From: Terriglobia bacterium
GTDB taxonomy: Bacteria; Acidobacteriota; Terriglobia; Terriglobales; Acidobacteriaceae
Assembly: GCA_020072645.1 (NCBI GenBank)
Contig: JAIQGK010000016.1
Coordinates: forward strand, 62,001 to 126,000
DNA length: 64,000 nt
Reading direction: 5' to 3'
Shown here: piece after piece, positions 5,209-24,176 of the stretch
How positions within the stretch are numbered: position 1 is the stretch's first letter
Layout of the letters: each line of letters opens with the position of its first letter
Translations under genes and position numbers: made by a program
The notes under the pieces: generated by a model
Database searches by the model: none
Told to the model about the DNA's origin: nothing
The model's input: the letters and a program-made list of their open reading frames with translations, nothing else

Positions 5209-8200
5209 ATGGCAACCACTTCTACTTCCAATTCGTTAGCGCATGCTCCGCAGGAATCATCCCAAAGCTTTGCGTTTCCGGCTTCTTTTGCGCAACGCCG
5301 CTTGTGGTTTCTGGACCAGCTTGTTCCTGGTGATGTGTCTTATAACGTTTCGGGGGCGGTAGAAATTGAAGGTGAGATCAATACAGAAGCGCTGAAAAAA
5401 AGCCTGCAGGAGATCGTGCGCCGCCATGAATCTCTGCGAACGCTCTTTCGCGGCGAGCAGGGCGAATCGCAGCAGGTGATTTATGCGGACATGCCTCTGA
5501 GCATCGAAGTTGTGGACCTGCAGTCACTGCCAGAGCAGGAGCGGGCGACCAAAGCCGAACAACTCGCGCGGGAGAAAGCCAATGCTCCCTTTGATCTTAA
5601 GCGCGGACCGCTGTTCCGTGTGAGCCTGTTGCAGCTGGGAGAACAACATTACTGGCTGGTAGTGATGATGCACCACATCATTTCCGACGGCTGGTCGGTG
5701 GGCGTCCTGGTGCGCGAACTGGTTGACTTATATAGTGCGTTTGCGCAGGACATGCCGTCGCCATTGCCGGAATTGCCAATCCAGTACGTGGACTACACGG
5801 CCTGGCAGCAGGAGCAGTTGAGCGGTGAACGCCTGCAGGCCGAGGTTGACTACTGGAAGAATCAGCTGGAGGGATCTACCACACTGGAAATTGTGACAGA
5901 TCATCCCCGGGGCGCGCGCACGGCCAATAAGGGGGCGACGGAGAGAGTACAGATTGAGCCGGAACTGGCCCGGGACGTGAAGCTATTTGCCCAGGAGCAC
6001 GGCGCTACCTTGTACATGGTGCTGCTTGCAGCTTTTCAAACTCTTCTGCACAGGTACAGCGGGCAGACGGAGGTCCTTGTGGGCTCGCCGATCGCCGGAC
6101 GCACTCAGAAAGAGGCGCAACTGCTGATCGGATTTTTCGTCAACACTCTGGTGATGAAGGCGAATTTCGATCCCGGGATTACCTTTCGCCAGTTGCTCCG
6201 GCAGGTGAAAGAGACGACCCTCGGTGCCTATGCGCACCAGGAGCTGCCGTTCGAAAAGCTGGTGGAAGAACTCTCGCCAGACCGCAATTCAGGCAGAACG
6301 CCGTTTTTCCAGGCGGTGTTCGCCTTCCAGAATGCTCCCATGCCGGAACTGGAACTGGGCTCGGCCAAGCTTCGCATGCTTGAGCTGCCGAATGATACCG
6401 CCAAGTTTGAGATGACGATAGTGATGCAGGAGTTCGGCAACCTCATCAGGGGATCGCTGGAGTACAGCACGGATCTATATGAGGCGGCAACCATCTCCGC
6501 GCTATTGCGCCGCTACGTTTTCCTGCTGGAATCGCTGGTGCATGATCCGGACCGGCCGGTTTCGCAAGCGCCGCTGGTGGATGAGGAAGAGCGCTCCCGC
6601 CTGGCGCAGGGTTGGCGCTCAAAGGTCACGCGCACGCCTCTGGCCGCGCAGAAAACATGGGCTGAACTGATTGCCGAACATGCCCGCGACGAGAAGAAAG
6701 TTGCTCTGATCATTGGCGAAAACCAGATCACTTACCGGGACCTGAATCAGCGAGCTGGTGAAATTGCGGGGCAGTTGCAAGCCGGAGGAGTTCAGCCGGG
6801 CGCACGGGTGGCGGTTTGTACCGGCCAGACGGGGGAGATGGCCCTGGCGTTGTTAGGTGTTTTCAAAGCCGGAGCTGTGGCGGTGCCGGTGGATACTGAC
6901 GGGCCGACTGCGCGCATGGAATCAATCCTCAAAGATGCTGAGGCAGGCTGGGCGTTAACGGAAGGAAAGTTTGAGCCACAGCTTCGCCAGGCTGGACTGA
7001 AATGCATTGTCATTGCGAGCGGCAGCCCATCAGCTTCAGCCACGGCGCCAATCGAATCCAGAATCTGCAAACCAGAAGAGCCGGCGCTGCTGGTTTATCA
7101 ATCCGGTGGTTCAGGCCGTCCGGAAGGTGTGGTGGTTCCCCATCGCGGCCTGTTGCCGCGGACCTTTGCCTTAGAAGCAAAAATTCTGCCTGCGGACCTG
7201 GTCGGCCTCTGGCCGCAGCTGGCAACGGAAGAAAATGGAATCCTTGAGGTACTGCATTGCCTAGGGACGGGTGCAACCATCGTGCAACTGGATGCGGATG
7301 GAACTCCGCGCAAATGGGCTTCCACTATACGCGAGCAGAAGGTCGACGTGCTCTTTGCCCGCGGTCCGGAAATAGAGCGGCTGGCCAGAGAGTTCGGCAC
7401 CACGCTGAAAAATGTCAGATTCATCGTGTGCACCGACCGGGGCGCGGACGTGGCCCGGCTGGGAGAGAACCTGAAAGGGGAGATGCTCGACAAGGTGTAC
7501 CTCACCTACGGTCTGAATGAGACCTGCGGCTGGTGCGCTTTATATCCTCTTTCGCAGCGTAAAAAGGGGATCGCGGAGTACCTTGCCGCCGGCGTAAAGC
7601 TGGAGTTGCTGGATGCGGACATGAACCCGCAGCCGGAAGGCATTGTGGGTGAAATCTTTATTGGCGGAGAACACCTGGCGCTTGGGTACAACAACCTGGG
7701 TGGACGCACGAAAGAGGTTTTTTTAAGCGATGAGTATTCCAGCGAACGCGGGGCCTGCGTTTTCCGCAGCGGTGACATGGGGTGGCACGCGAACGATGGA
7801 ACGTTGCGGATGTTCGAACGCCGCGACGGAAGAGCATGGATTGCCGGGGTCCGAGTGGAGCCCGCAGAAGTGGAAGCGGCGCTCAAGAGTTTTGATGGCT
7901 TGCAGGATGCAGCCGTCCTGATTGGACAGAACGGCGTGTCGGCGTTTCTTGTGGCCGGGGAAAAGGCACCTGAAACAGACAAATTGGAAGCCTGGTTATT
8001 ACAAAAGGTCCCCAAGATTATGTTGCCGCGTACGGTGCATCTGGTGGAGCGCATTCCGAGGCTTGGGGAAGCAGAAGTGGACCGCCTGAAGCTGAAGGTG
8101 CTGGCGAAGCAGTTGGAAAAGGCCCGGGATGCGGCCGCGCCCTATGCTCCGCCGGAAAGCGATATTGAGCGGAAGCTGGTGGCCATTCTGGAAAAGACCC

Positions 8201-8460
8201 TGGGACTGGAGCGGGTGGGCATTCATGACGACTTCTTCCGCATAGGAGGACACTCCCTTTTGGCTACCCAGGTAGTGGCTCAAATCAGCCATGAACTCGG
8301 GGTAGAATTGCCCTTGCGCCGGCTTTTTGAAGCGCCCACCGTGGCCCAGTTGGCCCAGGCGATTACCGAGCTTTCCCATGCGGAAGCGCAAGTGGAAGCC
8401 ATCCCCCAAATCAAAAGAATTGCGCGCGTTCCGGTACAGCAGCAAACAATAGCAAAGTGA
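5209..8460 (+). CDS. NRPS module C-A-T with degenerate adenylation domain
   Basis: A 1083-residue single-module synthetase. Residues 20-460 are a condensation domain with an intact active site H155-H-I-I-S-D-G161; its neighbour suggests it joins the fatty acyl group of the FAAL carrier to an amino acid. Residues 480-965 have the adenylation fold but have lost key residues: the A3 loop reads QSGGSGRPEG, with E639 where Lys is expected; the A5 region reads TYGLNETCG; A8 reads RRDGRAWIAGVRVE; and A10 reads PRLGEAEVDR, with E956 replacing the catalytic lysine. The domain is also short between A3 and A5. Residues 985-1060 are a carrier with 'IGGHS' and attachment serine S1016. AGGAG lies before the ATG. 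The carrier is probably loaded in trans by the stand-alone A-T protein at 15793-17673. No thioesterase follows. Confidence 0.92.
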   Translation: MATTSTSNSLAHAPQESSQSFAFPASFAQRRLWFLDQLVPGDVSYNVSGAVEIEGEINTEALKKSLQEIVRRHESLRTLFRGEQGESQQVIYADMPLSIEVVDLQSLPEQERATKAEQLAREKANAPFDLKRGPLFRVSLLQLGEQHYWLVVMMHHIISDGWSVGVLVRELVDLYSAFAQDMPSPLPELPIQYVDYTAWQQEQLSGERLQAEVDYWKNQLEGSTTLEIVTDHPRGARTANKGATERVQIEPELARDVKLFAQEHGATLYMVLLAAFQTLLHRYSGQTEVLVGSPIAGRTQKEAQLLIGFFVNTLVMKANFDPGITFRQLLRQVKETTLGAYAHQELPFEKLVEELSPDRNSGRTPFFQAVFAFQNAPMPELELGSAKLRMLELPNDTAKFEMTIVMQEFGNLIRGSLEYSTDLYEAATISALLRRYVFLLESLVHDPDRPVSQAPLVDEEERSRLAQGWRSKVTRTPLAAQKTWAELIAEHARDEKKVALIIGENQITYRDLNQRAGEIAGQLQAGGVQPGARVAVCTGQTGEMALALLGVFKAGAVAVPVDTDGPTARMESILKDAEAGWALTEGKFEPQLRQAGLKCIVIASGSPSASATAPIESRICKPEEPALLVYQSGGSGRPEGVVVPHRGLLPRTFALEAKILPADLVGLWPQLATEENGILEVLHCLGTGATIVQLDADGTPRKWASTIREQKVDVLFARGPEIERLAREFGTTLKNVRFIVCTDRGADVARLGENLKGEMLDKVYLTYGLNETCGWCALYPLSQRKKGIAEYLAAGVKLELLDADMNPQPEGIVGEIFIGGEHLALGYNNLGGRTKEVFLSDEYSSERGACVFRSGDMGWHANDGTLRMFERRDGRAWIAGVRVEPAEVEAALKSFDGLQDAAVLIGQNGVSAFLVAGEKAPETDKLEAWLLQKVPKIMLPRTVHLVERIPRLGEAEVDRLKLKVLAKQLEKARDAAAPYAPPESDIERKLVAILEKTLGLERVGIHDDFFRIGGHSLLATQVVAQISHELGVELPLRRLFEAPTVAQLAQAITELSHAEAQVEAIPQIKRIARVPVQQQTIAK

Positions 8461-12809: not shown

Positions 12810-14426
12810 ATGAATCGAGAACCGCTTTATTTACGGCAAAATATCCAGGTTGAACCACTCGTAGACCATTGGTATGCGTGGCCTTATTTAATCCCGCCCG
12901 CAACTTATGCGCGGAACATGTGCGGACGGCACTTCAAGATCATGGATTCCTACATCGCAGCTCCTCAGGTGCATGCCGAAGCGGTCAAGAATCCCCGCAT
13001 GCTGGGAGGACCGTTTATTGACTATGGCGGCAAGAGGGCGGATGAGATCAAGGCACTGCGTGACAGGACAAAACAGGAACGCAGCAACCTGGTTGAACTT
13101 TCCGCGGCCATTGATCAGCTCAACACCATGCTACGCTCCAAAGCGAATGGCTTGTGGATGCATCCTTTATACAACGACGTTCCCGACGCCCTGCGCGGCT
13201 ACGTTGAGCTGGTCTATGACCTGAACAACAATCCCTCATTCCGGCTGATTGAGCCGCTGCTCTACAAAAGCGAGTACTACCATCCTGAGGCGCAGAGCTT
13301 AATGTTGTCGCCGATCCAAGAGGATGATCGGCCGTTTGTGCTGAGCACTCCCCGCCTGGAGACGCCCGGCAGCCTGCATTTGAAGATCCCCTTTGCCGAT
13401 CGCTCAATTGATGAACTTTTCCGCCTCAAGTTTTCTCCCAAGCCCATGAACAAGATCAGGGACATGGTCGATGTGCCTGCCGGCTCGGAAGCATTGTTTG
13501 AGTCATTCTTTACGCCCGAGCCGCCGCGCCCGTACAAACCTTATACCGGGAAAGGGATCCGCTGGCGCTACTTCGGGCATGCGTGCATTCTGGTTGAGAC
13601 CGGCGGCGTCAGCATGCTCTTCGATCCAGTCCTGAGCTATACCTATGAGAGCAAAATTTCACGGTACACCTATCTGGATTTGCCCGAGGTGATCGATTAC
13701 GTGCTGATCACGCACAATCATCAGGACCACGTCCTGTTTGAAACCCTCCTGCAGCTTCGCCACAAGATACGCCACATCGTGGTGCCGCGCGGCGGTGGTG
13801 GTCCTTTGCAGGACCCATCCCTGAAGCTGCTCCTTCAGAGTTGCGGATTCCCGTCAGTCATGGAATTGCAGGAGCTCGAAACGTTGCAATCCGACGAAAT
13901 GCAAATCATGGGCGTGCCATTCATGGGCGAGCATTGTGACCTGGATATCCGGACGAAAATGGCATATCTGGTTAAAACCTCCCGGAGTTCTCTGCTGTTT
14001 GCGGCTGACTCATGCAATATCGAGCCGGCGATTTATAAGAACATACAGCGTGAGGTCGGCGATCTGAATGCCTTGTTCCTGGGCATGGAATGCGATGGAG
14101 CCCCTCTCTCCTGGCTCTATGGTCCGCTGCTCAGCCGGCCTCTTGAGCGGGACCATGACCAGTCAAGACGGCTCTACGGATCGAATTTCGACCAGGCGCT
14201 GGACCTGGTGAAGCAGTTCCGCTGCCGTGAAGTGTATGTCTATGCCATGGGACAGGAGCCATGGCTCAATTATGTGATGAGCCTGAAGTACACCGAAGAA
14301 AGCCGTCCTATTATCGAGTCCAACAAGCTGCTGGATTATTGCAAGCGGCACGGAATCGTTGCGGAACGCCTCTTCGGCGAAAAAGAGATACTCATAGAAT
14401 CTGTTGCGGCTACTTCAGTCGCGTGA
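12810..14426 (+). CDS. CmlA-like di-iron beta-hydroxylase (metallo-beta-lactamase fold)
   Basis: A 538-residue protein with an N-terminal domain (residues 1-240) and a metallo-beta-lactamase fold (245-520). The metal motif is H302-N-H304-Q-D306-H307; further on, E374 in 'GEHCDLD' takes the place of the usual MBL histidine, and D400 lies in 'FAADSCN'. From memory, the chloramphenicol hydroxylase CmlA (532 residues) binds its two irons through H305, H307, D309, H310, E377 and D403, which is the same pattern shifted by three. CmlA hydroxylates the beta-carbon of an amino acid held on an NRPS carrier protein. A stand-alone A-T protein, the usual partner of such enzymes, is present at 15793-17673. 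'GAGTAAGAG' precedes the ATG. A simple lactonase is the alternative but fits the glutamate ligand and length less well. Confidence 0.75.
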   Translation: MNREPLYLRQNIQVEPLVDHWYAWPYLIPPATYARNMCGRHFKIMDSYIAAPQVHAEAVKNPRMLGGPFIDYGGKRADEIKALRDRTKQERSNLVELSAAIDQLNTMLRSKANGLWMHPLYNDVPDALRGYVELVYDLNNNPSFRLIEPLLYKSEYYHPEAQSLMLSPIQEDDRPFVLSTPRLETPGSLHLKIPFADRSIDELFRLKFSPKPMNKIRDMVDVPAGSEALFESFFTPEPPRPYKPYTGKGIRWRYFGHACILVETGGVSMLFDPVLSYTYESKISRYTYLDLPEVIDYVLITHNHQDHVLFETLLQLRHKIRHIVVPRGGGGPLQDPSLKLLLQSCGFPSVMELQELETLQSDEMQIMGVPFMGEHCDLDIRTKMAYLVKTSRSSLLFAADSCNIEPAIYKNIQREVGDLNALFLGMECDGAPLSWLYGPLLSRPLERDHDQSRRLYGSNFDQALDLVKQFRCREVYVYAMGQEPWLNYVMSLKYTEESRPIIESNKLLDYCKRHGIVAERLFGEKEILIESVAATSVA

Positions 14427-14499: not shown

Positions 14500-15066
14500 T
14501 TAGCTGACAGTGGTCTGCGGCGGTATGTAGGTTGGACCAAAGCATACAGGCTGAAATTTGCGGTCCACACCACTTCCGGTGTAATGCGGTGTCCACCCGC
14601 CCACATCCTGGAACAGACGTATGGCGCGGATGCGGCGGTCCACGCATAAATTGAACCAATGCAGTGTTCCCCGTGGCACTCGAATCAGGTCGCCGGCGAC
14701 TACCTCAATGCCGACCACCGGTTTGCCTTGGGGATGAATGTGGAACAATCCCCGTCCAGCAACAATAAAACGCACCTCATCTTCATCATGGGTGTGCTCT
14801 ATATTGAATTTTGCGAGCATGGTTTCCAGGCCTGAGGTCTTGGGATTTACGTCGATGACATCGGCCGTAACATATCCGCCGCGGGCCTTTAATTGCTCGA
14901 TGTGCGGCGCATAAGCCTGCAAAACTTCCTCGGGCGAGGCGCCTTCTTCAATTTCCACATCCGTGTTCCACTGCTCGTAATCAATCCCGATACCGGCCAG
15001 ATATGAGGTGATTTCTGCGGGATCGGACAGTGTGCGATTTTCTTCTGGAATAGTAACAACAGCCAT
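14500..15066 (-). CDS. mtnD: Acireductone dioxygenase
   Basis: A 188-residue cupin enzyme of the methionine salvage pathway. It cleaves the acireductone 1,2-dihydroxy-3-keto-5-methylthiopentene with O2 to the 2-oxo acid of methionine plus formate (Fe form). The metal ligands are visible: H-x-H and E in '[11 protein letters not shown]', and the later histidine in 'GTLHWF'. Length matches the family (about 180). AGAGG precedes the ATG. It is the last gene of a minus-strand operon with mtnB 20 bases upstream, and the third salvage enzyme, mtnC, lies at 22257. All three sit inside an NRPS cluster, which is unusual; see findings. Confidence 0.92.
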
Positions 15067-15086: not shown

Positions 15087-15776
15087 CTATGGTGAACGTT
15101 GTTCCCGCCCGAACGTGGTCCGGCCGAGAACTTCAAACAGGAACTCGAAAATTTCAACGTGACGTTTCGCCTCCTGCAGCGTTCGTCCCCAGGTATATAA
15201 GCCATGGCCGTGAAGCAGGATGCCATGGGCATTCGGGCTCTGGTTCAGCGTGGTTTCTACCAGGCCCGACAGTTGAACCATGTCTTGAGAGTTTTTGAGA
15301 ATAGGCACCCATTCCCGGTGCTCGTGGGTCTTGACGCCCTCGAGACCTTTCAGCATTTCATATCCTTCTATGCTAAGTCCGTTGCGCGAGACTTCGCGCT
15401 CGGAAAGGACCGTGGCCCAGATTGAATGAGTATGCAGGACCGCGCCCGCATTCTGTGCCCGCACAATAGCGAGATGAATGAGGTACTCAAAGGAAGGGCG
15501 CGACCGCCCAGTCAGTACCTCTCCTGCTTCATTGATTTCCAGGATGTCAGAAGGAGCAAGTGTACCTTTGTCCACCGAGGTAGGCGTAATGGCCAGCCGC
15601 CGCGGATCGCCGCTGAGCACGGCACTGAAGTTGCCTCCGGTGCCAAATACCCAGCCACGAGAGTAGAAATCCTTGCCGATGCCAGCCAGGGCAGATGAGA
15701 GTTCCTCGAACTCGTGGTCATTCTCCTGGCGGACCGTCAGGCCGGTATTGCCGCGACTTGATATTGGGAAGGCCAT
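15087..15776 (-). CDS. mtnB: Methylthioribulose-1-phosphate dehydratase
   Basis: A 229-residue class II aldolase-family enzyme that dehydrates 5-methylthioribulose 1-phosphate in methionine salvage. Typical parts are '[10 protein letters not shown]', the zinc-binding '[12 protein letters not shown]', and '[13 protein letters not shown]', which distinguishes MtnB from fuculose aldolases. Length is close to the family norm of 200-230. It starts 16 bases after the A-T NRPS stop and ends 20 bases before mtnD, so all are one transcript. No mtnA (isomerase) or mtnP (phosphorylase) is present in the window, so earlier steps must be encoded elsewhere or the enzymes act on a different substrate. Confidence 0.9.
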
Positions 15777-15792
15777 ACGTTCTGTCCAGAGT

Positions 15793-17673
15793 TTATTTAG
15801 ATTTCAACTCTTCTATACGTTTTGCAATCTGCGCCACCGTAGGACCAGCGAGAAAGTCGGCAATGGACAGACTGGTTTGAAGATTGACACAAAGCGGTAT
15901 CAGGACTTCTGTAAGCAAAAACGAGTTTCCGCCAATGTTAAAGAAGTTGTCATAGATGCCTACGCGATCCAGCTTCAGGGTCTGGGCGATAACCGAGGCA
16001 ACTTCCTTTTCGATGGCATTGCGCGGCTCTTCCGCTCCAATTTTAACCCCGGCGCCACCAGTATCGATCTCCAGAAGCGCGGAACGATCAATTTTGCCAT
16101 TCGGGTTCAGCGGCATATCCTCAACGCGGATAAATTCGCTGGGCACCATGTATTCCGGAAGCTTGTCCTTCAGAAAGGGGCGAAGTTCCTCTTCCAGCCT
16201 CTCCCGGGTTGTGTTCTTTTCCTTGGGCGACAGATAGGCAATTAATCGCTGGTCGCTTGGACCGTACCCTTTATTTAAAACCACCGCCTCCCTGACCACG
16301 GAATGCTGTCGCAGAGTGTTTTCAATGTCGCCAAGGTCGATGCGGTATCCGCGCAGCTTTACCTGATGATCGACCCTGCCGATAAACTCCAGATTCCAGT
16401 CCGGCAGAAATCTGCTCATATCGCCGGTGCGGTATAGCAGGGATCCGGGTTCGCTGCTGAAGGGGTTGGGGACGAACTTTTCCTCAGTCAGGGCAGGATC
16501 ATTAATATATCCTTTGCCTACGCCGTCTCCAGCTATGCATATTTCCCCCGGCTCGCCGAAGGCCACGGGCTTCAAATCGCTGTCGAGCAGATAGATCTGG
16601 GTATTGAAAACCGGCTTGCCTATCGGCACGGACGAAGTCACGTAACGGGCATAATCCTTGAGACGGTAAAACGAAGACACATCGCTGCACTCGGCTGCTC
16701 CGTACACGTTGGCCACTTCCGCACGACAATCGGTGGATTCAGCCCATTCCCGCAGGCGCGATGCCGAGATAGCTTCCCCGCCAAGGAACAATACCCGCAA
16801 CGAGTGCAATTTCTGGGCCGGCGACAGGAGCGGATTTTCAATCACCGGATAGAACGTGCTGGGAGCGCAATTCATCAGGGTGATCTGTTTCTTGTGGATA
16901 GTTGCGAGAATCAGCCCTGGATCGAATCTGCTGGAGGCGAGCAGATGCAGTTCCCCTCCGCGAATCAATGGCATAGCGATGCTTCTCTGGGTAATGTCAA
17001 AACTGAAGGAGCTAACCACCAGATTCCTGTCCGCGGTGGTTACATTGAATTCCGTAACAAACCAATGCATTAAATTGGTCCAGCCGCGATGGAATACGGC
17101 CGCAGCCTTGGCTTTGCCGGTAGATCCTGAAGTAAAAATCACATAGACCAGGCTATCCGGCGTTGCTTCGCTCACAGGACGAGTTTTGCTTTCAGCCGCA
17201 ATGGAGTCCTTCTGGCTGTCCAGAAAAATCATGGTTGCCTTGTTTTCGGGCAGCCTGTCAGCCAGATTTTGGTGGGTAAGCAGCACCTTAATCTCCACAT
17301 CGCTTACCATTGAGCTCAGACGCTTTGGTGGATATGCCGGATCCAGGGGAACATAAGCGCCCCCGGCTTTAAGTGTTCCCAGAAGGGACACAATCATATC
17401 TATAGAGCGCTCCATGCAGATGCCCACCAGGGTATTAGGGCCTACTCCCAGTTTTTGCAGATACCATGCAAGCTGGTTGGCCCTTTCATCCAGATCCTTG
17501 TAGCTGAGCTGCTGATCGCCATGAACCAGCGCGGTGGCGCCTGGATTTTCTGCCGCTCTTTCTTCAAAAAGCTGGTGAACACACTTGTCGCGGGGATAGT
17601 CTTTCTGTGTAGCATTCCATTCAGCCAGTGTCTGTTGCAGCTGCTCATGAGCACCGGTGGCTACTGTGGCCAT
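15793..17673 (-). CDS. Stand-alone NRPS adenylation-carrier (A-T) protein
   Basis: A 626-residue A-T didomain protein. The adenylation domain (about 25-530) is complete: A3 'FTSGSTGKAKAAAV', A4 'SFSFDITQRS', A5 'NVYGAAECSD', A7 'YRTGDM', A8 'GRVDHQVKLRGYRID', and catalytic lysine in A10 'NPNGKIDR'. It keeps Asp at the position that binds the amino group, so an alpha-amino acid is the likely substrate; the rest of the pocket cannot be matched to a known code by eye. The carrier (about 545-620) has 'FFNIGGNS' with attachment serine S584. It probably loads the amino acid for the degenerate C-A-T module at 5209 and presents it to the CmlA-like hydroxylase. GAGGAGAG stands before the ATG. The upstream neighbour is a SAM-dependent enzyme, 120 bases away. 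Confidence 0.92.
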   Translation of the reverse strand: MATVATGAHEQLQQTLAEWNATQKDYPRDKCVHQLFEERAAENPGATALVHGDQQLSYKDLDERANQLAWYLQKLGVGPNTLVGICMERSIDMIVSLLGTLKAGGAYVPLDPAYPPKRLSSMVSDVEIKVLLTHQNLADRLPENKATMIFLDSQKDSIAAESKTRPVSEATPDSLVYVIFTSGSTGKAKAAAVFHRGWTNLMHWFVTEFNVTTADRNLVVSSFSFDITQRSIAMPLIRGGELHLLASSRFDPGLILATIHKKQITLMNCAPSTFYPVIENPLLSPAQKLHSLRVLFLGGEAISASRLREWAESTDCRAEVANVYGAAECSDVSSFYRLKDYARYVTSSVPIGKPVFNTQIYLLDSDLKPVAFGEPGEICIAGDGVGKGYINDPALTEEKFVPNPFSSEPGSLLYRTGDMSRFLPDWNLEFIGRVDHQVKLRGYRIDLGDIENTLRQHSVVREAVVLNKGYGPSDQRLIAYLSPKEKNTTRERLEEELRPFLKDKLPEYMVPSEFIRVEDMPLNPNGKIDRSALLEIDTGGAGVKIGAEEPRNAIEKEVASVIAQTLKLDRVGIYDNFFNIGGNSFLLTEVLIPLCVNLQTSLSIADFLAGPTVAQIAKRIEELKSK

Positions 17674-17717
17674 ACTTCTCTCCTCATGGATTATTTTACA
17701 CGTTGGGAAAAGAGCGC

Positions 17718-17745
17718 GCCTGAAACACAGGATAGTGTTTCAGGC
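17718..17745 (-). other. Stem-loop between the SAM enzyme and A-T genes
   Basis: A perfect 11-base-pair stem, GCCTGAAACAC/GTGTTTCAGGC, with a 6-base loop. On the minus strand it is followed by GCGCTCTTTTCCC, a poor U tract. It could be a leaky terminator or an RNA-processing stem that sets different levels for the genes on each side. Confidence 0.45.
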
Positions 17746-17793
17746 GGCTTACTTTAAGCTGTATTACGCAGCATAGGAAGCTTGCGATCCTGC

Positions 17794-18729
17794 CTAGCTG
17801 TTTGTCGGCCGGGCTGCAACGATCTGGTACGAGTTCGTCGGGTTTACGCACTCGCCCGGCGTGGGAATCATTTTCAGGAATTTAAGATCGAATTTGGAAA
17901 ACAGCCCGCGAATCTCGTTCTCATCCACCAGCATATGCCGCGTATGGACCTCAGCGAACTGCTCGAACCTCTCAAGCAGATCTGACATTGACGTGCCAGT
18001 CTTCTCCAGGGTCTCCGCTTCGATCTGGGACAGGCTCCGGCTGCGTTCTGCATAACCGCGGCGCAATTCGGGGGTCGTGACGCCGCCGATCATGGCAGTG
18101 GTAACCACCGACCCGCCCGGCGCAAGGAGCTTCAGCCAACGCTCGGTAATCATTGGCTTATATTCACTCTTCAAAACAGTGAGGAACTCGTCGGTCACAA
18201 TCAGGTCAAAGCTGCCCAGCGGCATGGACGGGCTTGTGATCAGATTGTCCACAAAGCATTCAATTTTAAGGCCGTGCCGCTTGGCATACCATTCGCAAGC
18301 GGTCAGGGGCGTGGCGCAAATATCGTAGATTTTGATGGTCGGATTTGCCTTTGCCGTCTTGATCGCTTCATGCAGGGTCGCCAGCATCCCATAGTCTGCG
18401 CAGGCGGAAATAAGGACGTTGGCCGTTGGCTTCTTGCGCAGAATTGTACTTAGAGCATCATTGTAAAACTCATACCACGGTGGCACCGCAACCATATTCA
18501 GGAGACGTAAAAATTGCCAGGTGCCATGATACCAATCGCATGCGCCCGGAGCATCGGAGCCCTTATTGGTCTTGGCCCATTCTTCCATCCCGCCAACTTC
18601 TTTGTGCTTGCACTTTGTTCGAGACCAGTCCCACATCAGTGGCGCTGAATCAATCAATAAGCTACGAGTTTCGTCGTCCAATTTGTATAGGTCGGCTGGC
18701 TGTAATACTTGCATCTCGGCAGCTTGCAT
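17794..18729 (-). CDS. SAM-dependent class I methyltransferase-fold enzyme
   Basis: A 311-residue Rossmann-type SAM enzyme. The SAM site appears as 'NVLISACADYGML' (about residue 117), where the usual G-x-G-x-G is replaced by S-A-C-A-D-Y-G. It is followed by an acidic strand end in 'IYDICATPL' and 'FDLIVTDEFL', then 'LLAPGGSVV'. An unusual N-terminal part (1-105) contains 'CDWYHGTWQFLRLLN', which I do not recognise from ordinary O- or N-methyltransferases. It leads the minus-strand operon with the A-T NRPS, mtnB and mtnD; AAGGAG lies ten bases before the ATG. Methyl transfer is the default reading. The neighbouring methionine-salvage genes raise the alternative that it cleaves SAM at the aminobutyryl side and releases methylthioadenosine, as azetidine-2-carboxylate synthases of the VioH/AzeJ type do. 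That alternative is inference. Confidence 0.75.
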   Translation of the reverse strand: MQAAEMQVLQPADLYKLDDETRSLLIDSAPLMWDWSRTKCKHKEVGGMEEWAKTNKGSDAPGACDWYHGTWQFLRLLNMVAVPPWYEFYNDALSTILRKKPTANVLISACADYGMLATLHEAIKTAKANPTIKIYDICATPLTACEWYAKRHGLKIECFVDNLITSPSMPLGSFDLIVTDEFLTVLKSEYKPMITERWLKLLAPGGSVVTTAMIGGVTTPELRRGYAERSRSLSQIEAETLEKTGTSMSDLLERFEQFAEVHTRHMLVDENEIRGLFSKFDLKFLKMIPTPGECVNPTNSYQIVAARPTNS

Positions 18730-18958
18730 TAGTCGTAATCTCCTTGTATGAGGGTACCGTTCGTGAATTAATATCTTTTAACACTTCCTAATAGTTAGGT
18801 GAAAAAGATACCTTATGAGGGCTAGCTTCAATACCTCTTCTATCGCGTGTTCTAACTGTGATATAGATGAATTCTTGATTTATATAGCTTGGACGAACTC
18901 GATACTAGCATCGCCGTGATTAGTAGATCAATGTGAAGCAGGTTAAAATTTTTTGACA

Positions 18959-19010
18959 ATTCCCAAATTGAGAGATGGTTTCAAAATGGGAATTTGTTCC
19001 AAAATGGAAC
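18959..19010. promoter_or_regulatory. Palindromic operator region shared with 3020-3055
   Basis: GTTCCA-AAA-TGGAAC at 18996-19010 is the same dyad as at 3020-3034 with a different spacer. Next to it, GGGAAT (18988-18993) pairs with ATTCCC (18959-18964); read on the minus strand, the segment is a second, imperfect TTCCCATTTTGAAA site centred 17-18 bases from the first. The AT-rich 18730-19163 gap has no gene and separates the minus-strand SAM-enzyme operon from the plus-strand KAS III operon, so one regulator could drive both. Confidence 0.6.
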
Positions 19011-19163
19011 GTAACCGATACACAAAGCCTATGACCGAAAGGATAGCTGTTTATTCCGTTGTATAGGCTGAGGGGGGGCTTAGACGGGAAATTATCTGCT
19101 GTGTTACTCTCGAAACCGTACGACAATCCTTTATCTAAATTAGGGACCCAAAGCCGATCATAT

Positions 19164-20117
19164 ATGGAACCCATGGTTAAAAGCGCGAATCGTTTTTTGT
19201 CTGGTGTTGCCTATTCGGTTGGTACTCCCTGTCCAATAGAGAGCTTGAGGGAGAGCGAGGGAATATCGCCCGAGATACTGAATGATCTCAAGGGGAGGGG
19301 GCTGCGCAGTTTTTATCAGGACAGCCGCACCATCCCTGAGATGTGCATGAGCACGGCAGAAGAGACGCTGAAACTCGCGGGATTGAGGCCTGAGGAGATA
19401 GATTTGATCCTGCTTGCCACCTCGAATGCCGATTGGGTCAACACACTGGACGCCGAAACTGATTTGTTTTCAATATTTCGCAAAAGCGGTTTTATCCGGA
19501 CACGTTTGATTGGATTGTCATTGCAGGCATGCAGCGCGTTTGGTGAAGCGGCGCGGATTGCTGCTGACCTCACAGCAGGGCAAAATCCAGCCAAGAACGT
19601 CCTGGTGATTCTTTTTGGGCGCAAGGAGACGCCCAGCAGGTTGGGGCCGGCTGCCAGTACGGTCTATAGCGACGGCGCCGCTTCCTGCATTGTGTCAGCC
19701 GACAAAGGTAATTTTGAGATCTGTGCCAGTGAGAGTCTGTTCAATATTCATTTAGGCGCGATGGGACGTTTAGGGAACTTTGATCAATTTGTGGGGGGCG
19801 TCCAGGACATAACGGAGATCAGCCGAGGAGTACTTGAAAAAGCCGGCATTCAACCCGAGGATATTAGCGCTCTCTTTTGCACCAACGGCAGCCTGGTCCA
19901 CCTGCGGGTGATGGCGAATGCGGCGAAAGTGGCGCTAGACCGAGTTTACAGCGAGGATGTCGCCAGGTTCGCTCATGTGTATTCGTGTGACAACCTTATC
20001 AGCCTGAAGAATTATTCCAGTGAAAAGACGCTTGCGCCGGGCAGTTATTACCTGCTATTAGGATGGTCGCCTCATATCGTCAGTGCGGCCGTTCTCCGGT
20101 ATGTGGGGAATACATAG
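19164..20117 (+). CDS. KAS III-like (FabH family) condensing or acyl-transfer enzyme
   Basis: A 317-residue thiolase-fold protein related to 3-oxoacyl-ACP synthase III. The triad can be placed: C123 in 'LQACSAFGEA', H246 in 'TNGSLVHLRV' and N277 in 'SCDNLISL', with nearly the same spacing as Cys112-His244-Asn274 of E. coli FabH. The histidine motif lacks the 'HQAN' of housekeeping FabH, so this is a specialised paralogue; such enzymes in biosynthetic clusters can make C-C bonds or transfer acyl groups to form esters. The start is uncertain: ATG at 19164 or 19173 rather than the far upstream TTG at 19059. It heads the right-hand plus-strand gene group after the shared operator. Confidence 0.82.
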   Translation: MEPMVKSANRFLSGVAYSVGTPCPIESLRESEGISPEILNDLKGRGLRSFYQDSRTIPEMCMSTAEETLKLAGLRPEEIDLILLATSNADWVNTLDAETDLFSIFRKSGFIRTRLIGLSLQACSAFGEAARIAADLTAGQNPAKNVLVILFGRKETPSRLGPAASTVYSDGAASCIVSADKGNFEICASESLFNIHLGAMGRLGNFDQFVGGVQDITEISRGVLEKAGIQPEDISALFCTNGSLVHLRVMANAAKVALDRVYSEDVARFAHVYSCDNLISLKNYSSEKTLAPGSYYLLLGWSPHIVSAAVLRYVGNT

Positions 20118-20173
20118 ATAATGCAAGCATAGGGGTTTTCTGGAGTAGATCTCATGCCCGGGCGGAAAGAGTC

Positions 20174-21196
20174 ATGATGAGCTCTGAATTGATACTTGAT
20201 CGTAAAGTAAAGGAGTTCCTGCGCTTACTGGCAGTGCAGGACGGCCCGCATCTTTATGAGGTTCCGCTGGATATTGCTCGTGCCATGGCGGTCATCGGGC
20301 AGCTGCGTTTTCCCGTGCCCAGAATCGAAGCAGACGTGGAAGACAGGGAAATTGAAATTGGAAGCCAGGGCCGCCTCAGAATTCGCATTGTCCGCCCTGT
20401 AGGAAGCCGTGGAAAGCTGCCGGGCATCATGTATTTTCATGGCGGCGGCTGGGTAGTCAATGATCGAGACACCCATGACCGCCTGGTCCGTGAGATTGCT
20501 TACGGATCTGAAGCTGCGGTTGTCTTTGTGGAGTACTCACGCTCACCTGAAGCGCGTTACCCCACAGCTATTGAAGAGGCATATGCGGCCACCTGCTGGG
20601 TTGCGCAACACGGGGCAAGCATTGGCGTTGATCCGGAAAGGATCGCGGTGATGGGAGACAGCGCCGGCGGCAATATGGCAACCGTGGTTACCTTGCTGGC
20701 AAGGCAACGTGGCGGACCAAAAATCCTGGCGCAAGTGCTCTTTTACCCCACCACGGATTGCAATTTTGAAACTTTGTCTTACCAGCAGTTTGGGAAGGAT
20801 TACTTCCTGACGCGGGAGGACATGCAATGGTTCTGGAATGAATATGCTCCCGATCCGAATGTGCGATTGGAGCCTACCGCGTCGCCGTTAAGGGCTTCCC
20901 TGGAGCACCTTAAAGGGCTTCCGCGCGCATTGATCATCACCGGTGAGTGCGACGTGGTTCGGGATGAAGGTGAAGCATATGCGCGGCAGCTTGCGCGCGC
21001 GGGAGTGGAGGTCACTGCCACGCGATATCTGGGGATGATTCACGGATTCACATTTCTGAATGTCTTTGCCGATCTGCCCGCGGCCAAAGCTGCGATTGCT
21101 CAGGCCACAGGGATGTTGCGAAGCATCTTCGCAGTTTCAGCAACGGAGACAATGAGGTCGAACACGGAATTGGCTTCTGTTATCAAAGCAGGTTGA
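20174..21196 (+). CDS. Alpha/beta hydrolase, hormone-sensitive-lipase family
   Basis: A 340-residue esterase/lipase-like enzyme. The HSL-family oxyanion motif 'HGGGW', the nucleophile motif G-D-S163-A-G-G, the acid in 'GECDVVRDEG' and histidine in 'GMIHGF' are all present. There is no signal peptide, so it is cytoplasmic. The ATG at 20174 is preferred because GGAAAGAG lies just upstream and an earlier start would overlap the KAS III-like gene. Its place after that gene suggests a role in releasing or trimming an acyl intermediate, but general esterase activity is as likely. Confidence 0.85.
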   Translation: MMSSELILDRKVKEFLRLLAVQDGPHLYEVPLDIARAMAVIGQLRFPVPRIEADVEDREIEIGSQGRLRIRIVRPVGSRGKLPGIMYFHGGGWVVNDRDTHDRLVREIAYGSEAAVVFVEYSRSPEARYPTAIEEAYAATCWVAQHGASIGVDPERIAVMGDSAGGNMATVVTLLARQRGGPKILAQVLFYPTTDCNFETLSYQQFGKDYFLTREDMQWFWNEYAPDPNVRLEPTASPLRASLEHLKGLPRALIITGECDVVRDEGEAYARQLARAGVEVTATRYLGMIHGFTFLNVFADLPAAKAAIAQATGMLRSIFAVSATETMRSNTELASVIKAG

Positions 21197-21348
21197 GTCC
21201 TGCCATAGCTGATGGACCCACTCCCCGCAAACGCGCTGGTTGAGGCGGCGATCACGATTTATGATATACGTGTCAAAGCAGTAGCAAACTGCGGATGCGT
21301 GATAAAAGCAGCTTTAGCTCCCATTCTGAAAATGTTCTGGAGGTTATT

Positions 21349-21720
21349 GTGAGTTCTCAAACCAGCTACTCCATTAATTTGGATGCGAAATTCGGAAACC
21401 TGGAGAAGATAGATATCAACGCCCTTGTGAATGCCTGCAAAGAGCCCTGGTTTAACCAGACGCTCTGCCGGGTGAATGATTGTGTCGTGAGGCTGGGTGT
21501 GGTGCACGGTGAGTTCCACTGGCATAAGCACGATGAGGAAGACGAGTTCTTCTATGTGGTGCAAGGAAGATTCTTCATTGATTTGCAGGACCGCAGTGTA
21601 GAGCTTCTCCCCAACCAAGGCTTCACTGTGCCCAAAGGAGTTATCCATAAGACCAGGGCGCCGGAGCGCACGGTCATATTGATGATTGAAGGCGCAGGCG
21701 TTAAACCTACGGGCGACTAA
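21349..21720 (+). CDS. Small cupin-domain protein
   Basis: A 123-residue single-domain cupin. The first cupin motif 'HWHKHDEEDEFFYVVQG' gives H-x-H and a Glu as metal ligands; the second appears as 'VPKGVIHKTRAP'. Start: GTG at 21349 with GGAGG five bases upstream; a longer ATG frame from 21295 lacks such a site. Small cupins of this kind act as isomerases, dioxygenases or tailoring enzymes, and no specific reaction can be assigned. It sits in the right-hand arm of the cluster, 49 bases before the YbaK gene. Confidence 0.8.
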   Translation: MSSQTSYSINLDAKFGNLEKIDINALVNACKEPWFNQTLCRVNDCVVRLGVVHGEFHWHKHDEEDEFFYVVQGRFFIDLQDRSVELLPNQGFTVPKGVIHKTRAPERTVILMIEGAGVKPTGD

Positions 21721-21768
21721 ACGTTTAAGTCCACAAAATTGGGCGAACATTCAAGGACGGAAGAACGA

Positions 21769-22260
21769 ATGTCACAGGAAACGTATGAGCGTTTAATCGC
21801 TCTTTTAGATCAACACAAAGCGCAGTACCGGCTAATCGATCATCCGGCTGAAGGGCGCACCGAGCTTGTGAGCCCGATGCGAGGCAACCGGCTGGAACAG
21901 GCGGCAAAATGCATCGTGATCATGGCCAAGCTGGGCAGGAAAACCACCAAATACATCCTGGGCGTTGTGGCTGGAGATGCCCGGGTCAATTTAAATGCCG
22001 TGAAATCATTGCTAGGAGGGACATATATATCCTTTGCCTCTCCTGACATTGCAGAGAAGCTCTCAGGCAGTGTAGTGGGAACGGTCCTGCCATTCTCATT
22101 TACGCCGGAAATGGAGCTCATTGTCGATCCTGGGCTTCTAGTGAACGAGGAAATCTTTTTCAACGCAGCGCGCCTTGACCGATCCATGGCGTTGCGTACG
22201 AGTGATTATCTGGCCATTACACAACCCCGCATCGAAAAGATTGCCGCCTCGGCCGAATGA
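21769..22260 (+). CDS. YbaK/ProX-type aminoacyl-tRNA editing protein
   Basis: A 163-residue free-standing editing domain of the YbaK/INS family, which removes wrongly attached amino acids, chiefly from tRNA-Pro (Cys, Ala or analogues). The lysine expected in the active site lies in 'VIMAKLGRKTTKYILGVV', with 'VAGDARVNLNAVKSLLG' and the 'GTVLPFSFTPEMELIVD' strand after it. The ATG at 21769 has GGAAG upstream. Its stop overlaps the start of mtnC (ATGA at 22257-22260), so the two are translated together. Inside a cluster this could be a self-protection gene if the product or an intermediate is a proline-like amino acid; that is inference. Confidence 0.82.
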   Translation: MSQETYERLIALLDQHKAQYRLIDHPAEGRTELVSPMRGNRLEQAAKCIVIMAKLGRKTTKYILGVVAGDARVNLNAVKSLLGGTYISFASPDIAEKLSGSVVGTVLPFSFTPEMELIVDPGLLVNEEIFFNAARLDRSMALRTSDYLAITQPRIEKIAASAE

Positions 22261-23066
22261 GCAAACCATTAACAGCGAACGATCATGGAAGCGCGGTCAA
22301 GCCTCAGCAAACCGGAAATGAGCCTGAGATGGTCCCAGCGAAGCTGACGCAGATCATTCTTTTGGATGTGGAAGGAACAACCGCGCCTATCAGCTTCGTC
22401 TACGAGAAGCTCTTTCCTTACGCTCGTAAGAATATCCGGTCCTACCTGATGCAACACGGCGAGCAGCCTGAGATCAAAGATGCCCTGGTGCGACTGCAGG
22501 AAGAAAATTTGCAGGATTTGAAAGACGGCGCGCCGGGCTTTGGCCGGAACCAGGGAGATGGGAAGTACATCGACTCTGCCGTGGCCTATTGCCTCTGGCT
22601 TATGGACCGTGACCGCAAGACAACCCCATTGAAAACTCTCCAGGGCCATATCTGGAGGGAAGGTTTCGCAAGCCACGAACTGCAAAGCGAGGTTTTCGCC
22701 GATGTGCCCGAATGTTTTGCCGCCTGGCGCAAACAGGGCAGGCGAATCGCAATCTATTCGTCGGGAAGCGTGGCTGCGCAAAAGATGGTCTTTGAGAACA
22801 CGCCGTTTGGCAATCTAACGCCTCAAATCGAAGCTTTCTTCGATACCAATGTGGGTCCCAAAAAAAGTGCGAACAGCTATACCCGGATCATCAAGGAGCT
22901 TCGGGCCAATCCGGCAGACGTCCTTTTTGTCTCTGATGTGCCCGACGAACTGGACGCTGCCGTCGCCGCTGGAATGTCGGTGGCGCTGGCCGTCAGGCCA
23001 GGCAACACGCAGTACCCCAATGCTCCCAACTATCCTGTAGTGAGTTCGCTGCACGATCTCCGCTAG
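22257..23066 (+). CDS. mtnC: Enolase-phosphatase E1 (2,3-diketo-5-methylthiopentyl-1-P)
   Basis: A 269-residue HAD-superfamily enzyme of methionine salvage. It enolises and dephosphorylates the diketo phosphate to the acireductone used by MtnD. Visible motifs: I 'LLDVEGTTAPISFV', II 'IYSSGSVAAQK', the lysine of III in 'NVGPKKSANSY', and IV 'LFVSDVPDELDAA'. About 30 extra hydrophilic residues at the N-terminus make it longer than the usual 230. It overlaps the YbaK gene by 4 bases. Together with mtnB and mtnD it completes three consecutive steps of the pathway within the cluster. Confidence 0.93.
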   Translation: MSKPLTANDHGSAVKPQQTGNEPEMVPAKLTQIILLDVEGTTAPISFVYEKLFPYARKNIRSYLMQHGEQPEIKDALVRLQEENLQDLKDGAPGFGRNQGDGKYIDSAVAYCLWLMDRDRKTTPLKTLQGHIWREGFASHELQSEVFADVPECFAAWRKQGRRIAIYSSGSVAAQKMVFENTPFGNLTPQIEAFFDTNVGPKKSANSYTRIIKELRANPADVLFVSDVPDELDAAVAAGMSVALAVRPGNTQYPNAPNYPVVSSLHDLR

Positions 23067-23137: not shown

Positions 23138-23166
23138 TTGACGCTAGCAAGAACACTTGGGATACT
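23138..23166 (+). promoter_or_regulatory. Sigma-70-type promoter of the phosphotriesterase-like gene
   Basis: TTGACG at 23138 and GATACT at 23161 are 17 bases apart, close to the consensus, about 33 bases before the chosen ATG. It suggests that the phosphotriesterase gene is transcribed separately from the cluster. Confidence 0.6.
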
Positions 23167-23198
23167 TTTCTTCCGTAACCCAAAGGAATTTTTCCACT

Positions 23199-24176
23199 AT
23201 GGCACAAGTGCAAACGGTCCGCGGGGCCATTGATACGTCGCAGCTCGGCACCACACTGATGCACGAGCACGTGTTCGTGCTGGATACCGAGATACTCCAG
23301 AATTATCCGGAAGAGTGGGGACGTGAAGAGCAGCGCGTTGCCGATGCCATAACGCGGCTGAACGAACTCAAGGCCAAAGGCGTGGACACGATCGTCGACC
23401 TTACGGTGATTGGGCTGGGACGCTATCTCCCCAGGATCAAGCAGATTGCGCATCAGACAAAAATTAACATCATCGTTGCAACCGGAATTTATACCTATCA
23501 CGATGCGCCGCTCTACTTTCATTTTCGCGGGCCGGGCACGGTTCTGGGTGGTCCAGAGCTGATCGTGGACATGTTTGTGCGCGACATCAATGAAGGAATC
23601 GCCGATACCGGAGTGAAAGCCGGAATTTTGAAATGCGCTACCGACGAACCGGGTGTGACCAAGGACGTGGAGCGGATTCTGCGCGCCACCGCACAGGCAC
23701 ACCGAAAAACCGGCGTGCCGATTTCTACTCATACACATGCCGGAAAGCGCGTGGGGCTTGACCAGCAAAGAATTTTTCGCGAAGAAGGCGTCGATCTCTC
23801 TCGCGTAGTGATTGGCCACTCCGGAGACACAACCGATCTGGGCTATCTGGAAGAACTTGTTGGCAACGGCTCATACATCGGCATGGACCGCTTTGGCATT
23901 GATACGATTTTGTCTTTTGAAGACCGCGTCAATACCGTGGCGGCCATGTGCAAGCGCGGCCATGCGGAAAAAATGGTGCTCTCGCACGACGCGGCGTGTT
24001 ACAACCACTGGCTGCCGGAACGTCCGTTGTCCACGATGCTGCCGCGATGGAACTATCTACACATCCATAATGATGTAATTCCCGCGCTGAAGCAGAAGGG
24101 CGTCACCCACGAGCAGTTGCAGACCATGCTGGTCACGAATCCACGAAAGATCTTTGATCAGCAGGGCGCTTATTGA
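23199..24176 (+). CDS. Phosphotriesterase-family metal hydrolase (lactonase-like)
   Basis: A 325-residue amidohydrolase of the phosphotriesterase-like family. Metal ligands appear as H-x-H in 'LMHEHVF', the bridging lysine in 'GVKAGILKCATDE', histidines in 'PISTHTHAG' and 'VVIGHSGD', and the Asp in 'VLSHDAA'. Family members hydrolyse lactones or phosphotriesters. The start at 23199 (MAQVQTVRG) matches the usual N-terminus; an upstream in-frame start at 23157 would fall within the promoter. It has its own promoter and is probably outside the cluster. Confidence 0.88.
   Translation: MAQVQTVRGAIDTSQLGTTLMHEHVFVLDTEILQNYPEEWGREEQRVADAITRLNELKAKGVDTIVDLTVIGLGRYLPRIKQIAHQTKINIIVATGIYTYHDAPLYFHFRGPGTVLGGPELIVDMFVRDINEGIADTGVKAGILKCATDEPGVTKDVERILRATAQAHRKTGVPISTHTHAGKRVGLDQQRIFREEGVDLSRVVIGHSGDTTDLGYLEELVGNGSYIGMDRFGIDTILSFEDRVNTVAAMCKRGHAEKMVLSHDAACYNHWLPERPLSTMLPRWNYLHIHNDVIPALKQKGVTHEQLQTMLVTNPRKIFDQQGAY

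What the first reader, a model, noticed from the sequence alone, without database searches (positions are those of the whole stretch)
15087..23066. Possible SAM-cleaving amino acid pathway with built-in methionine salvage and tRNA editing
Seen: a SAM-binding enzyme with a non-standard SAM loop (17794-18729), mtnB and mtnD in its operon, and mtnC overlapping a YbaK-type tRNA-Pro editing gene (21769-23066), all within an NRPS cluster. Known: azetidine-2-carboxylate synthases (VioH/AzeJ type) are methyltransferase-fold enzymes that turn SAM into a proline analogue plus methylthioadenosine; that analogue is mischarged onto tRNA-Pro; YbaK/ProX proteins clear mischarged tRNA-Pro; MtnB/C/D recycle methylthioadenosine carbon to methionine. 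Inference: the cluster makes an azetidine or related SAM-derived amino acid, recycles the by-product and protects itself. I do not know of a described cluster combining all three. mtnA and mtnP are absent from the window.
Basis: partly seen in the sequence, partly recalled or inferred. Interest (0 to 1): 0.85.

Follow-up and report, generated by a model that had tools for sequence, protein, structure and literature searches.

The report
Gene cluster recycling its SAM waste
A bacterium carries its only copies of three methionine-recycling genes inside a natural-product gene cluster, next to a SAM-binding enzyme of an unstudied family, which suggests that the cluster recycles the by-product of its own chemistry; the azetidine product first proposed is not supported.

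Summary
The genes are real. mtnD, mtnB, an NRPS A-PCP gene and a methyltransferase-fold SAM enzyme lie on one strand; a KAS III-like gene, hydrolase, cupin, YbaK-family gene and mtnC lie on the other. mtnB, mtnC and mtnD are the genome's only matches over cut-off. mtnC occurs in 37 of 396 sampled genomes of the phylum; 17 of 19 other loci have mtnB and mtnD beside it. Here the set is split around the biosynthetic genes, with most near-invariant residues kept. mtnA lies elsewhere.

The azetidine reading fails several tests. AzeJ/VioH structures were not among the matches shown; AzeJ's GxxxG loop is missing; the A-domain code is not proline-like; human ProXp-ala does not clear Aze-tRNA-Pro (PMC5741666).

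Best reading (0.45): the SAM enzyme, from a family with three invariant cysteines, modifies an amino acid and releases methylthioadenosine, which MtnB/C/D recycle. Weak support: genomes of its closer relatives have mtnC more often than expected, though mtn genes were not found near those relatives. An ordinary methyltransferase remains possible.

The parts
14500..15066 (-). mtnD, acireductone dioxygenase
   Evidence: PF03079 95.8 bits, cut-off 27; only match in the genome; 47 of 47 near-invariant residues kept
15087..15776 (-). mtnB, methylthioribulose-1-phosphate dehydratase
   Evidence: TIGR03328 202.1 bits, cut-off 137.05; only match over cut-off in the genome, 5 weaker ones below it; 34 of 37 near-invariant residues kept
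15793..17673 (-). A-PCP didomain that loads an amino acid; code DIRNFGVDVK
   Evidence: PF00501 287.7 bits and PF00550 30.3 bits; code from alignment
17794..18729 (-). SAM enzyme, class I methyltransferase-like fold without GxGxG, three invariant cysteines
19059..20117 (+). KAS III-like protein, proposed shuttle of the aminoacyl group between carrier proteins (true start may lie further in)
   Evidence: PF08541 31 bits, cut-off 26.6; 55% identical to one beside the second A-PCP; shuttle role by comparison with AzsD/Tri13 (PMC10445470 passages)
20174..21196 (+). alpha/beta hydrolase of the HSL type (start not certain)
   Evidence: PF07859 251.7 bits
21295..21720 (+). small cupin protein, also near the Microbispora SAM enzyme (37%)
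   Evidence: PF07883 40.3 bits
21769..22260 (+). YbaK-family (tRNA_edit) protein, substrate unknown
   Evidence: PF04073 61.6 bits, cut-off 25.5; TIGR00011 42.2 bits, under its cut-off 153.25
22257..23066 (+). mtnC, enolase-phosphatase (acireductone synthase)
   Evidence: TIGR01691 229 bits, cut-off 128.1; only match in the genome; 45 of 48 near-invariant residues kept
12810..14426 (+). CmlA-type diiron hydroxylase beside the module
   Evidence: PF18456 307.8 bits
5209..8460 (+). NRPS C-A-T whose A domain has lost key residues
   Evidence: domains; residues
3107..5182 (+). AMP-binding enzyme with carrier domain, fatty acyl-AMP ligase-like by my reading
   Evidence: PF00501 235.3, PF23024 45.2, PF00550 55.1 bits
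11074..12753 (+). ABC transporter with fused membrane domain, exporter-like
   Evidence: PF00005 85.7, PF00664 30.6 bits

Best explanation
This is the amino-acid-tailoring module of an NRPS-type cluster with its own methylthioadenosine (MTA) recycling. The A-PCP protein loads an amino acid; the CmlA-type enzyme, and perhaps the cupin, oxidises it; the SAM enzyme uses SAM in a way that breaks the C-gamma-S bond (aminocarboxypropyl transfer or a cyclisation), so that MTA and not S-adenosylhomocysteine is released; the KAS III-like protein moves the finished residue to the C-A-T protein, whose own A domain is degenerate. Host enzymes up to MtnA turn MTA into methylthioribulose phosphate, and the cluster's MtnB, MtnC and MtnD carry it on to ketomethylthiobutyrate. 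Shown: presence, arrangement, retained residues and single-copy state of the mtn genes; lost A-domain residues; a methyltransferase-like fold (predicted). Inferred: that MTA is the by-product, the shuttle, and the identity of the substrate.
For: Only mtnB/C/D matches over cut-off in the genome and all inside this module, split and interleaved with A-PCP, SAM and KAS III genes, while 17 of 19 other loci have mtnB and mtnD beside mtnC; 34 of 37, 45 of 48 and 47 of 47 near-invariant residues kept; mtnA elsewhere in the genome. Genomes of closer SAM-enzyme relatives carry mtnC in 4 of 5 cases, P = 0.0047 from group base rates. The sister A-PCP cluster on C3 has the same A code, a PhpK-like radical SAM protein just before the A-PCP and a class II aldolase after it, as if each cluster carried an enzyme for its own SAM by-product. 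Degenerate A domain in the C-A-T protein fits loading in trans.
Against: No mtn gene was found near any SAM-enzyme relative in 15 stretches searched, so the pairing rests on one genome. G631 has a relative and no mtnC, as have the genomes of the distant relatives L014 and L015 and G483. The co-occurrence test was framed afterwards and ignores relatedness; the base rate in the family of G397/G398 is 41 of 119. MtnB and MtnC keep slightly fewer near-invariant residues than the median of the others (0.92 against 0.97, 0.94 against 1.00). No reaction was tested.
Confidence: 0.45

Rival explanations
1. The SAM enzyme is an ordinary methyltransferase acting on a carrier-bound or free amino acid, with SAH as by-product. 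The mtn genes are the cell's general MTA salvage (for MTA from other sources) that came in with, or landed in, this cluster.
For: The nearest solved sequences and folds are plain methyltransferases. In relatives of the SAM enzyme the mtn genes were not found nearby. Ordinary mtn clusters exist in other genomes of the phylum.
Against: The Gly-rich loop is missing and three cysteines are invariant. The three mtn genes are split over both strands of one biosynthetic module, which mere landing of the usual linked set would not give.
Confidence: 0.3
2. One reading: the enzyme makes azetidine-2-carboxylate from SAM, MtnB/C/D recycle MTA and the YbaK-like protein clears Aze-tRNA-Pro.
For: Same general fold class; the spacing of Tyr67, Asp136, Phe182, Arg223 and Tyr226 resembles that of AzeJ Tyr18, Asp85, Phe134, Arg172 and Tyr175 (my count; no alignment to AzeJ was possible). 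The YbaK-like gene is a third tRNA_edit domain in the genome.
Against: AzeJ/VioH structures not among matches shown; no GxxxG; A-PCP code not proline-like and the other NRPS A domain in the window degenerate; human ProXp-ala does not act on Aze-tRNA-Pro (PMC5741666, passages).
Confidence: 0.1
3. MtnB/C/D are biosynthetic here: they turn a methylthioribulose- or deoxyribulose-type phosphate into a keto acid that becomes a building block, rather than recycling waste.
For: MtnB can act as a promiscuous aldolase on 5-deoxyribulose 1-phosphate (PMC8102628, passages). A PLP aminotransferase lies upstream (L010 602-1867). The genes share the module with the A-PCP.
Against: Most near-invariant residues are kept, so there is little sign of a changed substrate. 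mtnC and mtnD have one match each in the genome, both here, so the sister cluster on C3 with the same A code does without them. The aminotransferase is under the methionine aminotransferase cut-off (294 against 420 bits).
Confidence: 0.13

Closest known systems
AZE synthases AzeJ and VioH (azetidomonamide and vioprolide clusters; PMC11794875: Introduction, Results parts 1 and 2 of 3, context methods and data availability read)
   Same: class I methyltransferase-like fold without the usual GxGxG, in an NRPS setting
   Different: no sequence match found; no GxxxG loop; three invariant cysteines; A-domain code not proline-like
Bacterial methionine salvage pathway MtnA-B-C-D (as described in PMC8102628, passages)
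   Same: intact MtnB, MtnC and MtnD; MtnA in the genome
   Different: split over both strands inside a biosynthetic module and the only copies; elsewhere mostly linked to each other
5'-deoxyadenosine salvage / DHAP shunt (PMC8102628, passages)
   Same: idea of recycling a SAM-enzyme by-product; a class II aldolase beside a radical SAM gene in the C3 cluster
   Different: in the passages read the salvage genes are not part of an NRPS cluster
Azaserine and triacsin pathways (AzsD/Tri13 KAS III-like shuttles; PMC10445470, passages)
   Same: KAS III-like protein beside carrier proteins; hydrazine-type gene set upstream of the window
   Different: no mtn genes in the gene table passage seen; different NRPS layout
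YbaK/ProX trans-editing proteins
   Same: PF04073 domain
   Different: under the YbaK_EbsC equivalog cut-off; 20% identical to the genome's other stand-alone copy

Membership tests
AZE synthase (AzeJ/VioH) | detectable sequence homology to AzeJ or VioH | tested here: not met
   8RYD-8RYG not among 15 hits at E<=1, 32 at E<=10, or the best 60 of 75 at E<=10; presence of these entries in the held copy was not checked separately
AZE synthase (AzeJ/VioH) | GxxxG motif at strand 1 | tested here: not met
   loop reads SACADYG
AZE synthase (AzeJ/VioH) | active-site residues Tyr18, Phe134, Asn139, Arg172, Tyr175, Tyr176 | tested here: inconclusive
   spacing of five residues similar, no alignment to AzeJ possible
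AZE synthase (AzeJ/VioH) | SAM turned into azetidine-2-carboxylate and MTA | not testable with these tools
   needs an enzyme assay
Class I SAM methyltransferase fold | seven-stranded Rossmann-like fold | tested here: met
   AlphaFold model pLDDT 77, pTM 0.80; top 50 fold matches mostly methyltransferases
Class I SAM methyltransferase fold | Pfam methyltransferase cut-off | tested here: not met
   PF13649 21.1 bits, cut-off 27
Methionine salvage pathway | MtnB, MtnC and MtnD over curated cut-offs | tested here: met
Methionine salvage pathway | MtnA present | tested here: met
   TIGR00512 448.8 bits on contig C1
Methionine salvage pathway | MtnP or MtnN/MtnK present | not tested
   no search made
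YbaK Cys-tRNA(Pro) deacylase | Pfam tRNA_edit domain | tested here: met
   PF04073 61.6 bits, cut-off 25.5
YbaK Cys-tRNA(Pro) deacylase | NCBIfam equivalog cut-off TIGR00011 | tested here: not met
   42.2 bits, cut-off 153.25
Hydrazine synthetase pathway (upstream set) | N-monooxygenase, DAO-type oxidase, MetRS-like protein and a cupin | tested here: inconclusive
   first three together at L010 2170-6592; the small cupin of the window lies far off and its link is not shown

The most novel reading that the evidence does not exclude
The SAM enzyme founds a new class of MTA-releasing SAM enzymes: a class I methyltransferase-like fold without the Gly-rich loop, with three invariant cysteines and a CxxYHxxW motif (perhaps a metal or Fe-S site), which breaks the C-gamma-S bond of SAM to put an aminocarboxypropyl group on, or make a ring for, a carrier-bound amino acid. 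Clusters built on this A-PCP module carry salvage matched to their SAM chemistry: MtnB/C/D for MTA here, a class II aldolase for 5'-deoxyadenosine in the sister cluster on contig C3.
Probability: 0.15. Interest if true: 0.85.

Novelty: new variant of a known kind. Interest (0 to 1): 0.5.

Why it matters
Salvage of SAM by-products is normally treated as general housekeeping. A cluster that carries its own matched salvage enzymes would give genome miners a clue to the SAM chemistry inside it: mtn genes would flag enzymes that cut the C-gamma-S bond instead of transferring methyl. It also singles out an unstudied SAM-fold family with invariant cysteines, 64% identical between this genome and a Microbispora, which can be assayed directly.

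Tried and rejected
AzeJ/VioH membership: rejected as a family claim after phmmer, two profile searches (60 of 75 rows seen in the latter) and a fold search (50 of 1811 rows seen). VIA-align was not available.

MetRS-like gene upstream (L010 4886-6592) as a methionine-related clue or self-resistance: set aside, because beside it lie an N-monooxygenase and a DAO-type oxidase, a set that matches published hydrazine synthetase pathways (passages). It lies about 27 kb from the SAM enzyme gene.

Riboswitch control: no Rfam match at gathering score in window 1-30000. Foreign base composition: G+C 0.50-0.58 in 2 kb steps over window 1-40000, nothing striking. Promoter scan: 7 found, 7.4 expected.

Co-occurrence tests: Fisher 0.0022 (4 of 6 SAM-family genomes have mtnC, 30 of 249 overall) and 0.0085 (2 of 2, 37 of 396 overall). 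The first mixes in a distant subfamily (G483, G497, G499, G501) and the second counts this genome itself, so I do not lean on them. One search uses five genomes (G396, G397, G398, G175, G631) and leaves out G000, G399, G400, G483, G497, G499 and G501. All are post hoc and ignore relatedness.

Plasmid search with the SAM enzyme: no match. Literature: search listings; sections or passages only were read.
Full report
WHAT IS THERE. The window is part of contig C16 of a 6.4 Mb genome. Its phylum is that of the record titled 'Acidobacteria bacterium' behind L013: family members of that genome, G398, show the same mtnC places as 'same phylum' genomes (for example C16:28515-29201). Between 14500 and 23066 lie two divergent gene groups. 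Minus strand: SAM enzyme 17794-18729, A-PCP 15793-17673, mtnB 15087-15776, mtnD 14500-15066. Plus strand: KAS III-like 19059-20117, hydrolase to 21196, cupin 21295-21720, YbaK-family 21769-22260, mtnC 22257-23066. A CmlA-type hydroxylase (12810-14426, PF18456 307.8 bits) lies beside them. Further upstream lie an ABC exporter-like gene, a C-A-T NRPS protein and an AMP-binding/carrier protein, and a stand-alone condensation-type ORF that crosses the window start (named from sequence).

THE MTN GENES. MtnB, MtnC and MtnD pass their cut-offs and are the only matches over cut-off in the genome (mtnB has five weaker matches below it). MtnA lies on C1, with no other mtn gene recognised within 1.5 kb. 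Against 21, 27 and 22 other copies (identical ones counted once, from both phyla sampled) MtnB, MtnC and MtnD keep 34 of 37, 45 of 48 and 47 of 47 near-invariant residues; the medians of the others are 0.97, 1.00 and 0.98. mtnC occurs in 37 of 396 sampled genomes of the phylum, this one included. Of the 19 other loci returned, 17 have both mtnB and mtnD within about 1.5 kb; L045 has neither and L048 lacks mtnB. Here the set is split over both strands around the A-PCP, SAM and KAS III genes. Of the same-family genomes printed, 2 of at least 22 have mtnC: this one and G171, whose set is an ordinary cluster. So the salvage genes are not a family-wide housekeeping trait and their placement is unusual, though they may still serve the whole cell.

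THE SAM ENZYME. It has no GxGxG loop and falls under the Pfam cut-off; the model is a class I methyltransferase-like fold (pLDDT 77, pTM 0.80, six-sequence alignment). Relatives: L011 (Microbispora) 64%, L012 52%, L013 51%, L014 29%, L015 30%; G175 34% over residues 62-223; G631, a longer protein, 166.9 bits; and weaker ones in G483, G497, G499 and G501. In 12 aligned sequences 20 columns are invariant, among them Cys40, Cys64, Tyr67, His68, Trp71, Arg75, Asp112, Asp136, Cys138 and Asp180. The G175 protein was left out of that alignment; by eye it shows the same Cys, CxxYH-like and DCC pattern. Three invariant cysteines are odd for this fold; a metal site is my speculation.

NOT AN AZEJ HOMOLOGUE BY THESE TESTS. 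The AZE synthase structures 8RYD-8RYG (PMC11794875) are not among 15 hits at E<=1, 32 hits at E<=10 with profile A1, the best 60 of 75 at E<=10 with profile A2, or the 50 fold matches shown of 1811. I did not check separately that these entries are in the held copies. AzeJ's GxxxG loop is absent. The spacing of Tyr67, Asp136, Phe182, Arg223 and Tyr226 (69, 46, 41, 3) does resemble that of AzeJ Tyr18, Asp85, Phe134, Arg172 and Tyr175 (67, 49, 38, 3; my count). This may follow from the shared fold, but it keeps SAM cyclisation open. The A-PCP code is DIRNFGVDVK, the same in a second A-PCP of this genome (C3, 61% identical) and DIRHFGVDIK in Microbispora. It is not proline-like; Arg at 239 with Asn/His at 278 recalls aminoadipate codes (codes from memory, not tested). 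The A domain of the C-A-T protein lacks Asp235 and the A10 lysine, so that protein probably receives its residue from the A-PCP through the KAS III-like protein, as AzsD and Tri13 move acyl groups between carriers (PMC10445470, passages).

THE YBAK-LIKE GENE. It is a PF04073 protein far below the YbaK_EbsC equivalog cut-off and one of three such domains in the genome; the others are a stand-alone copy on C5 and one in a 597-aa ProRS-like frame on C19. Identity to the C5 copy is 20%. Human ProXp-ala does not clear Aze-tRNA-Pro (PMC5741666, passages). A protective role is possible; the substrate is unknown.

THE LINK TO MTA. Genomes with closer relatives of the SAM enzyme carry mtnC in 4 of 5 cases, this genome left out: G396, G397, G398 and G175 yes, G631 no. 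Group base rates are 30 of 249, 41 of 119 and 37 of 396, which gives P = 0.0047. The clade boundary was chosen afterwards, the genomes of the distant relatives L014 and L015 lack mtnC, and relatedness is not modelled, so this is a hint only. In 15 stretches around the relatives, none of mtnB, mtnC, mtnD, YbaK, the MetRS-like protein or the N-monooxygenase was found at E<=1e-4. A second hint is internal. The C3 cluster has the same A code, a KAS III-like protein (55%), a PhpK-like B12 radical SAM protein 11 bases before the A-PCP (TIGR04479 564.1 bits, under its cut-off of 600) and a class II aldolase about 440 bases after it, whose best PDB matches are L-fuculose-phosphate aldolases, 6btd among them. 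Class II aldolases can take part in disposal of 5'-deoxyadenosine, a by-product of radical SAM enzymes (PMC8102628, passages). So each A-PCP cluster of this genome may pair a SAM enzyme with an enzyme for its by-product. That the C3 aldolase does this is not shown.

MODULE CONSERVATION. The Microbispora locus shares the SAM enzyme, an A domain with nearly the same code, a separate carrier-type ORF, an iron-type hydroxylase (PhyH instead of CmlA), an aminotransferase and a cupin (37%). The mtn, YbaK and hydrazine-type genes were not found in the stretches read on either side (L011, L077, L078). This argues that the SAM enzyme works with the A-PCP and oxidase part, and that mtn and YbaK are additions in this genome.

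VERDICT. A cluster with built-in MTA recycling is plausible and untested (0.45). The azetidine product and tRNA-Pro editing are not supported (0.10). Paper searches for such a combination (open-licence PMC text only) showed none.

Noticed in passing
L010 2170-6592 (G000:C16, upstream of the window): N-monooxygenase (PF13434 340.5 bits), DAO-type oxidase and MetRS-like protein in a row, the set known from hydrazine (N-N bond) pathways such as s56-p1 and azaserine; no fused cupin seen.
   Followed up: partly
L023 and L024 (G000:C3:430001-462000): A second cluster with an A-PCP of identical code, a KAS III-like protein, a PhpK-like B12 radical SAM protein, a class II aldolase and a large NRPS frame of at least 4032 aa.
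   Followed up: partly
window 5209-8460: The C-A-T protein's A domain lacks Asp235 and the A10 lysine, so it is probably inactive and loaded in trans.
   Followed up: partly
L011 12084-13484; L012 8501-9790 and 11908-13299; L013 11287-12687: Sodium/hydrogen-exchanger family genes (PF00999) lie close to the SAM enzyme in these three relatives; none was recognised by me around the window's copy.
   Followed up: no
L014 9128-9922 and 10007-10780; L074 8853-10432; L076 9020-10599: Distant relatives of the SAM enzyme lie directly after a second methyltransferase gene; the one in L014 (PF08241 75.4 bits) looks like CmoM (from memory).
   Followed up: no
L071 10864-12336: In G631 the relative forms the C-terminal part of a 490-aa protein with an N-terminal extension that hardly matches Pfam (DUF5753 19.7 bits, under its cut-off).
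   Followed up: no
window 17717-17746: A 12-pair hairpin lies between the SAM enzyme and A-PCP genes, followed by a T-rich stretch on the minus strand; could be an attenuator or chance.
   Followed up: no
window 23157-24176 and 31397-32860: A phosphotriesterase-family gene (PF02126 392.9 bits) just after mtnC and a cytochrome P450 (PF00067 288.1 bits) further on; membership of the cluster not known.
   Followed up: no
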